NCBI GenBank assembly: GCA_025361565.1
Contig: JANYKN010000018.1
Span: 1 to 64,000, forward strand
From: Bacteroidota bacterium
GTDB lineage: Bacteria > Bacteroidota > Bacteroidia > Bacteroidales > NBLH01
Length of the DNA: 64,000 bases
Reading direction: 5' to 3'
Part shown: positions 16,245 to 55,997 of the stretch, piece after piece
How positions within the stretch are numbered: the first letter of the stretch is position 1
Layout: each line of letters starts with the position of its first letter
The notes under the pieces: model-generated
The model's input: only the letters and a program-made list of their open reading frames with translations
Told to the model about the DNA's origin: nothing
Databases searched by the model: none
Program-made: the position numbers and the translations under genes

Positions 16245-16598
16245 CTATGTTTTTTTCTTCTTCGGCTTGCTCGCCTTTGCGCTCGGATTAAAATCAAGTG
16301 CCAATTGAATCCAGTAATCCAAATCTTCATCCATATCAATACCTTCAGGATTGATCATTAAAAATCCATGCATTGATTTACCTGTAAAATCCATTAATCT
16401 GCTTCCTTCTTTTTCCAATGCAACCACCTCAATTTCAGGATCAATACGTACCATCAGTTCGTCCTTTATAATACCGACACACATTTTATTGTCAACCATA
16501 AAAACCAAACTACCCATCATTTGTTTCTCAAGGTAAAGCACTTTTTTATGATGTAGGATTTGACGGATACGGTCGGCAAGAAATTCATTATAAGCCAT
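16245..16598 (-). CDS. TfoX N-terminal domain protein
   Basis: A 117-residue protein with the TfoX/Sxy N-terminal fold: KQMMGSLVFMVDNKMCVGI, DELMVRIDPE, FTGKSMHGFLMI and a Lys-rich tail. Stand-alone forms of this domain are common in Bacteroidota and have no proven function; the competence role of TfoX in gamma-proteobacteria should not be assumed. Located between the YdeI-like gene (54 bp upstream) and the serine hydrolase (7 bp downstream) on the same strand. Confidence 0.82.
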   Translation of the reverse strand: MAYNEFLADRIRQILHHKKVLYLEKQMMGSLVFMVDNKMCVGIIKDELMVRIDPEIEVVALEKEGSRLMDFTGKSMHGFLMINPEGIDMDEDLDYWIQLALDFNPSAKASKPKKKKT

Positions 16599-53714: not shown

Positions 53715-54350
53715 TTATTCCTCATTCCAATGCTCAACCCACCTCTCATATGAATTGTATTCTAAAGAATCATCTCTATTCCAATCAATTTCAATTTTTT
53801 TTGTTGAAGAATGTTCAATTAGTTTATTTATAGCATCATTGGTAATTTCAACACCTCTAGGATTTGTCCCTGCTTTTGGTAATTTGAAATAAAATTGTTT
53901 TCCATAATTAGACAAAATTTCTTTTTGACCTTCTTTAGATAAAAGATACATTGCACCCTTTCCTCCCCAATTAATATGAACAAATAAAATATCACATTCA
54001 GGAGAATAGTTGTTAATAAAAACTAAAGCCTTCTGTGCATCGACAGTCCAGATCAATTTTACGCCAACAATATTTCTATTTGTTACAGTTTTAATTGAAA
54101 TAGGTTCATCAAATACTATAACATCTATTTCGCTTTCAGTTATCGCTATATCAGTTTTGATATTTGAATCTCCAAACTTGTAAATAAGTAGTGCAATTAT
54201 TATTCTTTCTCTAGCCGATCCTATTTCCATTCCTAGTTTTCCATCACGAGAATTATCAATTTCAGCTAACTGAAAAAGATATGGAAGTTTTTCTTTAATC
54301 TTTTGGATCAAAAACTTCTCACTAAATATTTCATGAATTTTCTTTGCCAT
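53715..54350 (-). CDS. ThaI-like type II restriction endonuclease
   Basis: A 211-residue protein resembling the ThaI family (site CGCG). The likely PD-(D/E)xK core is SEIDVIVF with Asp76 and the SIK triad Ser85-Lys87 (EPISIKTVT). Other recognisable segments are MEIGSARERIIIALLIYKFG, VKLIWTVDAQKA and KLPKAGTNPRGVEIT. It follows the cytosine methyltransferase gene by 31 bp; together they form a restriction-modification system. Cleavage site is inferred from family resemblance only. Confidence 0.75.
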   Translation of the reverse strand: MAKKIHEIFSEKFLIQKIKEKLPYLFQLAEIDNSRDGKLGMEIGSARERIIIALLIYKFGDSNIKTDIAITESEIDVIVFDEPISIKTVTNRNIVGVKLIWTVDAQKALVFINNYSPECDILFVHINWGGKGAMYLLSKEGQKEILSNYGKQFYFKLPKAGTNPRGVEITNDAINKLIEHSSTKKIEIDWNRDDSLEYNSYERWVEHWNEE

Positions 54351-54381
54351 TCATATCCTAAATTAGGTTTTGATGCCAAAT

Positions 54382-55650
54382 TTACATAGAATTAAAATAG
54401 AATTCCCAATTTGATTCTATCTTTTTAGCAATGTGATATGCTAATAATGGAGGAACTGCATTCCCTACTAACTTATAACCAACAGATGGACTAACCGAAA
54501 ACTTTTTATTCTTTTCAATTACAAAATTAAAATCATCTGGAAAGGTTTGAATTCTTGCACATTCCCTTAAAGTAAGCCGCCTTTCTTTTAGTCCTTTTTG
54601 CAATTCTTCTATTTTTTTTCCTCCATTAGCAAGATTAAGCCTCCTATATTCAATGTTACCGTGATGTTCGGACCGTATTGTTGGGGCAAGCTTTTCTAAT
54701 TCAATTTCTTTTTGTCCTTGGCAATGAGCACCCATAAACTTTGCTCTTGAATAGTGAATTTGTGATAAATCTGTAGTTTCTTCTGGCTCTTTTAAATCCA
54801 ATAATACTTCTTTACATTTTGTATATGTTTTCATTAAAAGTTCAACAGAAGAATAATGAATTTCTCCATTAAGTCTATGTGTTGCAACCGGATACGGATT
54901 AAATTTTTCGCAAATGTCTTTTTTTGATAGTTCTTCAAATGCTTTCATTGTTAGTGCAGATTTTTTAAATCCAATAAAAATTATTCTTTCTCTAGATTGA
55001 GGAACACCGTAATGGCCAGAATGCAAAATTTTGGGGGATAGGACTATATATCCGTCACCATTTGTGTTTGAAAAGTCTGATTGGATAATTTTTTTTACTT
55101 CCCCTAAATTGGCCAATCCTTTTACATTTTCAGCAATGAAAATTTTAGGCAAAGTAATTTCAATAACTTCTTTCATCCACATATAAAGTTTCCCCCGTGT
55201 TTCTTCTGTTGGAATGGCTGAATTTATAACATTCCCGTTATGATCTTTATGTGAATTAAATCCGTTCCGTTTACCTGCAACACTAAAGTCTTGACAAGGA
55301 AAACCGCCAGTAACAATTTCTACATTTTTGGGAAATACATTTTTATTCCCTTTTCGATATTCTTTAACAATATCAACAATACTACCTACTTTAAAAGTTC
55401 CATTTACATCACAGCCTCTTTTTTTCGAAAAATAATCATTCCAAGCAATTTTGGCATGTTCGTTTATATCATTTGCAAATTTTGTCTCAAAAAATGTTTC
55501 TTTAAGATAATAATAAATTTCGTCTTCTTTTTGAATCCAATCTTTGTGGATGTTAGTGTTAATTGTAGCTTTAGGAATTTTAAATCCGCCTTCAAAGCCA
55601 ATATCCATTCCACCACAACCTGAAAAAAGTGATAACAAGTTCTTTTTCAT
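54382..55650 (-). CDS. DNA cytosine-5 methyltransferase
   Basis: A 422-residue C5 methyltransferase. Motif I LFSGCGGMDIGFEGG binds SAM; motif IV is GGFPCQDFS with catalytic Cys119; motif VI is ENV (174-176); motif VIII is QSRERIIFIG; motif X GNAVPPLLA. The target-recognition region between about 240 and 380 is specific and unread. It protects the cognate site of the adjacent endonuclease. The start overlaps the controller gene stop (ATGA). Confidence 0.95.
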   Translation of the reverse strand: MKKNLLSLFSGCGGMDIGFEGGFKIPKATINTNIHKDWIQKEDEIYYYLKETFFETKFANDINEHAKIAWNDYFSKKRGCDVNGTFKVGSIVDIVKEYRKGNKNVFPKNVEIVTGGFPCQDFSVAGKRNGFNSHKDHNGNVINSAIPTEETRGKLYMWMKEVIEITLPKIFIAENVKGLANLGEVKKIIQSDFSNTNGDGYIVLSPKILHSGHYGVPQSRERIIFIGFKKSALTMKAFEELSKKDICEKFNPYPVATHRLNGEIHYSSVELLMKTYTKCKEVLLDLKEPEETTDLSQIHYSRAKFMGAHCQGQKEIELEKLAPTIRSEHHGNIEYRRLNLANGGKKIEELQKGLKERRLTLRECARIQTFPDDFNFVIEKNKKFSVSPSVGYKLVGNAVPPLLAYHIAKKIESNWEFYFNSM

Positions 55651-55949
55651 TTTTTTATAGTTTTAAGATATTTAACTTTTGATTCTGCAACTTTCAGAAT
55701 TTCTTCTGCATCATTTTCATGCATTAAATCAAATGCGACTTTGTCACTTTGCCAAGAAATAATTAATTCATTTTGAGGTAATTTATAGATTTCAGCAAAT
55801 TTCAAGACTTGTTCTCTAGATGGTTTTCTTTCTCCCTTTTCAAATTTACTTATTATTGATTGGTCAATACTCGTCAAAGCTGAAATTTCACGAAGTAGCA
55901 AATTATATTCTTCACGTTTAGCTTTTATGATTTCTCCAAATGATCTCAT
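55647..55949 (-). CDS. Controller (C) protein, XRE-type HTH
   Basis: About 100 residues when started at the ATG at 55949; an upstream in-frame start would run through the promoter palindrome. The N-terminal helix-turn-helix (FGEIIKAKREEYNLLLREIS, SIDQSIISKFEKGERKPSR) is of the type in restriction-modification controllers. The C-terminal 35 residues are helical. Its stop overlaps the methyltransferase start, so it is the first gene of the C-M-R operon and should delay or limit expression by binding the palindrome upstream. Confidence 0.88.
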   Translation of the reverse strand: MRSFGEIIKAKREEYNLLLREISALTSIDQSIISKFEKGERKPSREQVLKFAEIYKLPQNELIISWQSDKVAFDLMHENDAEEILKVAESKVKYLKTIKK

Positions 55950-55983
55950 TAGACAATATTTGTTTGGACAAATATAGTCTAAT
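55948..55983 (-). promoter_or_regulatory. Palindromic operator overlapping promoter and start of the controller gene
   Basis: Arms ATTAGACAATATTTGT (55948-55963) and ACAAATATAGTCTAAT (55968-55983) pair at 15 of 16 positions around TTGG. The right arm contains the -7 box and the left arm contains the start codon of the controller gene. This is the expected layout for self-repression by a C protein. Confidence 0.85.
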
Positions 55984-55997
55984 TTTTTTAATGCCAA
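55969..55997 (-). promoter_or_regulatory. Promoter of the restriction-modification operon
   Basis: On the minus strand a -33 TTG (55997-55995) and an exact TAnnTTTG -7 box, TATATTTG (55976-55969), are 18 bp apart, close to the Bacteroidota spacing. The inferred transcript would begin only about 10-15 nt before the controller ATG. Confidence 0.7.

What the first reader, a model, noticed from the sequence alone, without database searches (positions are those of the whole stretch)
53715..55997. Self-contained C-M-R restriction-modification operon with a promoter-embedded operator
The 36-bp palindrome (15 of 16 paired) covers both the exact -7 box TATATTTG and the start codon of the XRE controller. 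The transcript should be almost leaderless. The controller stop overlaps the methyltransferase start. The whole operon probably moved in as a unit. It is an uncommon chance to read a C-box in a Bacteroidota promoter context.
Basis: partly seen in the sequence, partly recalled or inferred. Interest (0 to 1): 0.65.

Follow-up and report, generated by a model that had tools for sequence, protein, structure and literature searches.

The report
Restriction operon with promoter-embedded repressor site
A mobile three-gene bacterial DNA-defence cassette (regulator, protective methylase, DNA-cutting enzyme) whose regulator probably shuts off its own promoter by sitting on the core promoter box, a wiring that recurs in many defence cassettes of the Bacteroidota.

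Summary
On the minus strand, C (55647-55949), a C5-cytosine methyltransferase (54382-55650) and a ThaI-family endonuclease (53715-54350) form one operon; C and M overlap by ATGA. The 36-bp near-palindrome 55948-55983 covers the -7 box TATATTTG and two bases of the start codon (0.05 such repeats expected in 64 kb). The interpretation needs correction. The site is not a canonical C-box (GAC-N5-GTC) but GAC-N7-GTC plus a third half-site; the half-sites, not the perfect palindrome, are kept in all six C-M-R loci (window and five relatives). It is not rare: of 100 upstream regions of C homologs from Bacteroidota, 74 carry GAC-N7-GTC (0.5 in shuffles; 0 of 250 control ORFs) and 72 have an exact or relaxed operator docked on TAnnTTTG. 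Homologs head type I, II and III restriction systems, HepT/MNT pairs, Fic fusions and other cassettes. Geometry makes C a pure autorepressor rather than the classic activator-repressor. Predicted leader: 15 nt, so not leaderless. R's start codon lies in a predicted hairpin in all six loci, weakest in the window. CGCG specificity, C binding and repression are inferred, not shown.

The parts
55647..55949 (-). C: 100-aa XRE helix-turn-helix controller
   Evidence: Pfam HTH_19 E 1.3e-10, HTH_3 E 2.6e-9; profile of 47 homologs finds C.AhdI (1y7y) at E 2.7e-7; 6 C-M-R proteins aligned
54382..55650 (-). M: 422-aa C5-cytosine DNA methyltransferase
   Evidence: PF00145 E 6.9e-50; TIGR00675 E 1.2e-44; GFPCQ motif visible in the translation
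53715..54350 (-). R: 211-aa ThaI-family restriction endonuclease
   Evidence: PF15514 ThaI E 1.5e-83, profile 1-203 of 203; PDB 3ndh ThaI E 2.1e-70
55948..55983 (-). 36-bp near-palindrome spanning the -7 box, predicted start and first two bases of the C start codon
   Evidence: chance expectation 0.05 per 64 kb; the only match in the 6.76-Mb own genome with up to 3 mismatches
55967..55979 (-). Operator OL: GAC-TATATTT-GTC (core of TTAGAC-N7-GTCCAA, 55964-55982), -7 box inside the operator
   Evidence: GAC-N7-GTC in 74 of 100 homolog upstreams vs shuffle mean 0.54; 0 of 250 control ORFs
55952..55964 (-). Operator OR: degenerate left half AAC, N7, right half GTC two bases before the start codon (third half-site)
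   Evidence: TTGTCT invariant in 6 of 6 C-M-R loci; GTC (17) or TTC (19) at exactly this spacing in 36 of 87 homologs with an operator
55969..55976 (-). -7 promoter element TATATTTG
   Evidence: TAnnTTTG in 6 of 6 C-M-R loci; TAHHTTTG in 89 of 100 homolog upstreams vs 8.5 in shuffles
55995..55997 (-). -33 element TTG, 18 nt from the -7 box
   Evidence: read by eye; a TTG at 18-19 nt read by eye in 6 of 6 loci; no chance control made
55964..55964 (-). Predicted transcription start (15-nt leader)
   Evidence: inference from published -7 spacing (PMC6847099, passages)
54343..54380 (-). Predicted RNA hairpin enclosing the R start codon in the M-R spacer
   Evidence: -8.5 kcal/mol, z -1.13 in the window (25 of 200 shuffles as good); z -2.0 to -7.3 in the other five C-M-R loci; M starts in the same loci z +0.5 to +1.1
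54377..54384 (-). Possible internal -7 box TAAATTTG before R (weak)
   Evidence: TAnnTTTG at a similar place in 3 of 6 loci

Best explanation
A mobile type II restriction-modification cassette (C-M-R, ThaI family, predicted CGCG) with strict negative autoregulation. Shown by sequence: gene order, families, the operator and its conservation. Inferred: the C dimer binds TTAGAC-N7-GTCCAA, which contains the -7 element, and a second dimer binds the weaker adjoining site AAC-N7-GTC on the leader, ending two bases before the start codon; the bound protein excludes RNA polymerase. In a new host without C the promoter is fully open, giving a burst of C and M; C then throttles the whole operon to a steady state that depends little on copy number. 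R is third in the operon and its start codon is predicted to be folded into a hairpin, so R should trail M. The controller is one of a large Bacteroidota family whose operator is mostly docked on the -7 box and which is attached to many kinds of defence cassette.
For: Families. Footprint ATTnGACTAnnTTTGTCnAAACAnnnnTTGTCTnATG in 6 of 6 C-M-R loci while DNA further upstream diverges. Spacing-specific operator: GAC-N7-GTC 74 of 100, N6 3, N10 and N11 1 each, N3-N5, N8 and N9 0; shuffle means 0.34-0.58; 0 of 250 control ORFs in the same loci. 72 of 100 docked on TAnnTTTG in registers +7, +8 or -3 (60 exact, 12 relaxed; the three registers were fixed); +7 and -3 differ by 10 bp, about one helical turn. 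Effective number about 27 for the 87 with an operator. HTH core resembles C.AhdI and other XRE regulators. One TAHHTTTG upstream of C. No GAC-N7-GTC in the 120 nt before M or R. Start-codon hairpins at R in 6 of 6 loci, not at the M starts of these loci nor at the R starts of five C-less ThaI loci. Precedent for a controller whose site overlaps the -10 box and that was inferred to repress: mycoplasma HsdC (PMC5282649, passages).
Against: No binding, transcription or methylation data. 28 of 100 homolog upstreams are not counted as docked: 14 exact and 1 relaxed operator without TAnnTTTG in those registers, and 13 with no operator by my patterns, among them the Flammeovirga type I locus L055. 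The OR left half (AAC) is degenerate. The perfect palindrome is not kept in the relatives. The window's own R hairpin is the weakest of the six; predicted R hairpins are common in C-dependent systems (9 of 11) and disrupting those of PvuII had no effect (PMC2997769, passages). A possible internal promoter before R could uncouple R from C.
Confidence: 0.78

Rival explanations
1. Classic activator-repressor C system: C at low level activates, at high level represses, delaying R.
For: Small XRE protein heading an RM operon, GAC/GTC half-sites and two operators in tandem, as in C.PvuII and C.Esp1396I (PMC3758141, PMC3695507, passages). Seven homologs (L038, L044, L095, L107, L112, L119, L122) do carry an exact operator beginning 30 nt upstream of the -7 box.
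Against: In PvuII OR overlaps the -35 hexamer and OL binding activates; in the window the more complete site OL contains the -7 box and OR lies on the leader. The only other GAC-N7-GTC of the window are at 16562 and 25367. Spacing is N7, not N5.
Confidence: 0.1
2. R is expressed independently of C from an internal promoter, and C regulates mainly itself and M.
For: TAAATTTG overlaps the M stop, 34 nt before R; TAnnTTTG also in L006 and L012. A transcript from it would lack the left arm of the hairpin (inference). In Csp231I each gene has its own promoter and R expression is C-independent (PMC4824078, title and passages).
Against: Box present in only 3 of 6 loci, one of them with G at a position where G is rare (PMC6847099); 85 TAHHTTTG occur on the two strands of 64 kb, so one near R is not remarkable.
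Confidence: 0.2
3. The palindrome is a chance or DNA-structural feature without a regulator.
For: AT-rich DNA; the perfect palindrome is not kept in relatives.
Against: Half-sites are invariant in 6 of 6 loci and recur at one spacing in 74 of 100 homologs, 0 of 250 control ORFs.
Confidence: 0.02

Closest known systems
C.PvuII / C.Esp1396I / C.AhdI controller proteins with C-boxes
   Same: XRE protein, GAC/GTC half-sites (in Esp1396I the only specific C-box contacts are to GAC/GTC; PMC3758141, passages), tandem OL/OR, regulation of an RM operon; C.AhdI is found by the homolog profile
   Different: Spacer 7 instead of 5; operator on the -7 box and leader instead of the -35 region; all three genes behind one site; expected to repress only
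C.Csp231I / C.EcoO109I (Sorokin motif 8) controllers
   Same: 98-100 aa with extra C-terminal helices (PMC3115060, passages; helices 69-77 and 81-99 predicted here at low confidence)
   Different: Operator CTAAG-N5-CTTAG, widely spaced operators; C.Csp231I both activates and represses (PMC4824078, passages)
Mycoplasma HsdC
   Same: Controller of an RM operon whose site overlaps the -10 box and start; inferred repressor (PMC5282649, passages)
   Different: Direct repeats GTGTTA-N5, other promoter type, other phylum
ThaI restriction-modification system
   Same: R is full-length ThaI family
   Different: Controller gene present; five relatives (L007-L011) pair a ThaI-type R with a methyltransferase 34-36% identical to M and no C detected at E 1e-3. 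M was not compared with M.ThaI
PaaR-PaaA-ParE and Omega-Epsilon-Zeta toxin-antitoxin operons
   Same: Repressor gene first, then antidote, then toxin, with a strict repressor (PMC3874152, passages)
   Different: Different proteins; functional analogy only

Membership tests
ThaI-type II restriction endonuclease (PF15514) | Full-length match over the curated cut-off | tested here: met
   280.1 bits against cut-off 25, profile 1-203 of 203
ThaI-type II restriction endonuclease (PF15514) | Cleaves CGCG | not testable with these tools
   Specificity of ThaI is recalled; CGCG 34 observed vs 42.8 expected in the window, 0 in the operon, neither decisive
C5-cytosine methyltransferase | PF00145 match and PCQ motif | tested here: met
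   E 6.9e-50; GFPCQ in translation
Canonical C-protein / C-box system (PvuII, Esp1396I, AhdI) | Small XRE protein encoded with RM genes | tested here: met
   PADLOC Control_protein E 1.4e-4, but HTH_VI (1.2e-8), RmrA and capH models score better
Canonical C-protein / C-box system (PvuII, Esp1396I, AhdI) | Operator GACT-N3-AGTC (GAC-N5-GTC) | tested here: not met
   0 in the window, 0 of 100 homolog upstreams; N7 instead
Canonical C-protein / C-box system (PvuII, Esp1396I, AhdI) | Two tandem operators | tested here: inconclusive
   OL intact, OR has one intact and one degenerate half-site
Canonical C-protein / C-box system (PvuII, Esp1396I, AhdI) | Operators upstream of or on the -35 element so that C can activate | tested here: not met
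   OL contains the -7 box, OR lies downstream of it
Canonical C-protein / C-box system (PvuII, Esp1396I, AhdI) | Autogenous activation measured | not testable with these tools
   needs a reporter assay
Bacteroidota -7-docked controller family described here | GAC-N7-GTC operator docked on TAnnTTTG upstream of the gene | tested here: met
   register -3 (row WIN)

The most novel reading that the evidence does not exclude
The Bacteroidota possess a widespread, interchangeable class of defence-cassette controllers whose operator (TTnGAC-N7-GTCnAA) is built into the phylum's own -7 promoter element: its TTTG doubles as part of a half-site, in registers about one helical turn apart. Such a promoter is at once strong and autorepressible, and the module is swapped freely among type I, II and III restriction systems, HepT/MNT pairs and Fic proteins. 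The ThaI operons add a second safeguard, a hairpin over the endonuclease start codon.
Probability: 0.65. Interest if true: 0.7.

Novelty: new variant of a known kind. Interest (0 to 1): 0.55.

Why it matters
As far as I recall, RM controllers have been worked out mostly with E. coli-type promoters and activator-repressor C-boxes. Here a phylum with a different core promoter seems to use a spacing variant of the same GAC/GTC code that works by covering the -7 box. It gives a sequence signature with which to annotate controllers and promoters of defence cassettes in Bacteroidota, predicts their sign of regulation, and offers a compact autorepressible promoter for genetic tools in these bacteria. 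It also asks how R is delayed when C cannot activate it.

Tried and rejected
Canonical C-box spacing: searched and absent. Chance palindrome: rejected. Phage or viral origin: no match of C in 50,697 phage records, one weak hit in viral contigs, none for M there; the viral scans reach close relatives only. Other C sites in the own genome: TTNGACN7GTCNAA at two places (reversed pattern 16), GACTAHHTTTGTC at two (reversed pattern 4 on each strand). CGCG avoidance: 34 observed, 42.8 expected in the window, uninformative. Empty-site test: the same-genus contig that holds the neighbouring 56090-56821 gene and its TatD-like partner ends 266 nt beyond the former, and no homolog of the 52240-53532 gene was found in the short loci around it in relatives (the window genome's own locus, cut equally short, gave none either), so the insertion site could not be compared. 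M is found in 1 of 7 genomes of the genus sample, the own genome. Recognition-helix residue 31 (Ser in 28 of 28 homologs with purine flanks on both half-sites, Ala or Thr in 44 of 45 with T flanks on both, both kinds among the other 14) looks like a specificity residue, but there is only 1 independent pair on well-supported branches (3 in a looser version), so I do not claim it. AlphaFold model of C: HTH part confident, the last 40 residues below mean pLDDT 55, so the fold search says little more than XRE. A start-codon hairpin as a general feature of the family was rejected: of 39 second genes, 6 fold below -8 kcal/mol, 5 of them the ThaI loci. The third plasmid hit (Brevibacillus) was not looked at.
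Full report
What is there. On the minus strand, 55949-53715, three genes lie head to tail: a 100-aa XRE protein (C), a 422-aa C5-cytosine methyltransferase (M) and a 211-aa ThaI-family endonuclease (R). C and M overlap by ATGA; the M-R spacer is 31 nt. R matches the ThaI family over its full length (E 1.5e-83) and the solved ThaI enzyme (3ndh, E 2.1e-70). The CGCG target follows from the family (recalled) and was not tested. The ThaI family was found in 9 of 395 sampled phylum genomes, the own one included.

The palindrome. The 36-bp repeat 55948-55983 pairs 15 of 16. Nothing else in the window pairs 15 of 16 with a loop up to 8, and 40 Markov-2 sequences gave 0.05 per 64 kb. It is the only match in the 6.76-Mb genome with up to 3 mismatches. 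The single mismatch is the first base of the -7 box, so only the minus strand carries TATATTTG. By the published geometry of this element (T at -12, G at -5; PMC6847099, passages) transcription should start at 55964 with a 15-nt leader; the same paper reports 87% of leaders over 10 nt, mean 33, and a second flavobacterial map a median of 24 nt and 5.5% leaderless (PMC9723704, passages). The transcript is short-leadered, not leaderless.

Footprint in close relatives. One scan of genome contigs with R gave 11 loci. Five carry C-M-R (L002, L003, L004, L006, L012; R of L012 is cut by the contig end, 46 residues matched), one is cut so that only R is seen (L005, same assembly as L012), and five (L007-L011) carry R with a different methyltransferase, 34-36% identical to M, and no C detected at E 1e-3. 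C is 69-83% identical to the window's in the C-M-R set, M 84-88%, R 77-87% in the four with a whole R. Their promoters share ATTnGACTAnnTTTGTCnAAACAnnnnTTGTCTnATG with the window (6 of 6), while DNA further upstream diverges. The long perfect palindrome is not kept in the relatives; the half-sites are. Read this way the site is OL = TTAGAC-N7-GTCCAA, containing the -7 box, and OR = AAC-N7-GTC ending two bases before the start codon, centres 15 bp apart. DNA similarity of the window to these loci begins 42-74 nt before the C start; it ends 64 nt after the R stop against L002, L003 and L004, at the last R codon against L006, and at the contig end against L012. With such identities in records titled Lishizhenia, Cytophagales, Vicingaceae and Bacteroidales (titles as deposited; MAGs), this supports movement as a unit.

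The wider family. A profile of the six C proteins found homologs in 54 of 395 phylum-sampled genomes (E <= 1e-12) and 73 of 395 class-sampled genomes (E <= 1e-18; the samples overlap). I examined the loci returned by those calls, 40 further stretches and two plasmid loci; 32 weaker rows and 28 further rows were not fetched. I left out own-genome copies, a weak viral hit (L023), the duplicate L056 and the loci brought in by R alone. Of 102 homologs found, 100 had a distinct upstream region of at least 60 nt. In -110 to +6, GAC-N7-GTC occurs in 74 of 100; spacing 6 in 3, spacings 10 and 11 in 1 each, spacings 3, 4, 5, 8 and 9 in none; shuffles give 0.3-0.6 for each. In 250 other ORFs of at least 150 aa in the same loci (spurious ones included) it occurs in 0. 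TAHHTTTG occurs in 89 of 100 against 8.5 in shuffles. Of 69 upstreams with both (spacing 6-8, TAHHTTTG), 60 have them at offsets +7 (26), +8 (20) or -3 (14), 7 at -30, 1 at -18 and 1 at +33 (the pair nearest to +7 was taken). Taking those three registers, fixed after that result, as docked and allowing GCC and TTC half-sites, 72 of 100 are docked: 60 exact and 12 relaxed; GAC begins 7 nt (37), 8 nt (21) or -3 nt (14, the window's register) from the first T of the box. Fourteen exact and one relaxed operator are not docked, 13 upstreams show none; some of these have visible near-variants, such as GAC-N7-GAC, which I did not count. On a tree of the C proteins (quick method, few columns, many weak forks) register -3 needs 7 changes, at least 4 on well-supported branches. 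The homologs are not independent; clustering the 87 with an operator gives an effective number near 27.

What these controllers head. BLAST clusters of the next gene: 26 with the window's C5 methyltransferase, 24 N6/Eco57I-type, 10 N6_N4-type, 7 HepT-like (named after their representatives; the seven C proteins of the last are 195-199 aa, and L029 is a fusion to a nucleotidyltransferase), 27 others single or in twos and threes; for 6 no next gene was called, five of them HTH-Fic proteins of 349 aa. Pfam scans of 30 proteins (28 next genes and the C proteins L029 and L041) name C5, Eco57I, N6, N6_N4 and D12 methyltransferases, type III ResIII, BanI and AccI endonucleases, ThsB-like TIR, Schlafen AlbA (100 nt away), AAA_15, BRO-N, HepT, nucleotidyltransferase and Fic; five of the 30 had no match. 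The plasmid loci show an AAA ATPase plus site-specific methyltransferase, and an N-6 methylase plus HsdS; the latter locus has no operator by my patterns. So the controller is not tied to type II systems.

Mechanism. In PvuII, OL binding activates and OR overlaps the -35 hexamer (PMC3695507, passages). In the window OL lies on the -7 box and OR on the leader, so both bound sites should block polymerase. A mycoplasma controller, HsdC, whose site overlaps the -10 box, was inferred to repress (PMC5282649, passages). I therefore expect strict autorepression: a burst of C and M in a naive cell, then homeostasis. This does not by itself delay R. A second feature may: the R start region (-40 to +15) folds at -8.5 (window, z -1.13), -15.4, -21.8, -14.6, -9.8 and -10.2 kcal/mol (z -4.0, -7.3, -5.7, -2.1, -2.0), with at least two bases of the AUG paired in each, while M starts of the same six loci fold at 0 to -1.4 (z +0.5 to +1.1) and R starts of the five C-less loci at -0.1 to -5.6 (z +1.3 to -0.3). 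Among 39 second genes of the larger set, 6 fold below -8 kcal/mol, 5 of them ThaI loci; among 90 first genes 1 does. Bacteroidota translation is tuned by start-region structure (PMC6847099, passages). Against this, predicted R hairpins are common in C-dependent systems (9 of 11) and those of PvuII had no effect when disrupted (PMC2997769, passages), three of the six loci are close relatives, and the window's hairpin is the weakest.

Known or new. The homolog profile finds C.AhdI at 2.7e-7 and C.Esp1396I (3clc) at 5.1e-4, among many other XRE repressors, the best an unnamed regulator (9sf2, 8.4e-13). Esp1396I contacts only GAC/GTC in its C-boxes (PMC3758141, passages), so this family seems to use the same trinucleotides two bases further apart. 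My paper searches for controllers of this kind in Bacteroidota (listings) returned nothing on point; Sorokin 2009, the motif classification, is not held, so I cannot exclude that one of its motif classes covers it. Verdict: a new variant of a known kind.

Noticed in passing
L009:4138-5633 (Candidatus Magasanikbacteria MAG) and L007, L008, L010, L011: ThaI-type R paired with a different methyltransferase (34-36% identical to the window's M) and no C detected; in L009 R is still 86% identical to the window's R, which suggests partner swapping between M and R (or a mis-binned contig).
   Followed up: partly
L041, L047, L050, L051, L052 (349-aa proteins) and L029, L105 (195-196 aa): The same controller domain is fused to Fic (Pfam for L041) or to an MNT-type nucleotidyltransferase (Pfam for L029) followed by HepT. 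The five 349-aa genes carry GAC-N7-GTC: TAnnTTTG lies inside it in 4 of 5, CAAATTTG in L047.
   Followed up: partly
L038, L044, L095, L107, L112, L119, L122 upstream regions: An exact operator begins 30 nt before the -7 box, and in several a degenerate one lies on the -7 box; the right arm of the former may supply the TTTG of the -33 element. This subgroup could be an activator-repressor.
   Followed up: no
L101, L108 (BanI-type) and L115 (AccI): Controller is followed directly by the endonuclease gene, not the methyltransferase (Pfam for L101 and L115; L108 by clustering with L101).
   Followed up: no
G000:C33:94721-94739 minus (L125): The only other TTNGACN7GTCNAA found in the window's genome; read by eye it too is docked on a TAAATTTG, about 150 nt before a 381-aa ORF.
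   Followed up: partly
C residue 31: Ser with purine-flanked half-sites (28 of 28), Ala or Thr with T-flanked ones (44 of 45), mixed in the other 14: a candidate specificity residue, with too few independent contrasts to claim.
   Followed up: partly
G700 (contig length equals that of the Vicingaceae KA17 contig of L004): Six controller homologs in one genome; the five upstreams that I read differ in operator flanks and registers, which may avoid cross-talk.
   Followed up: no
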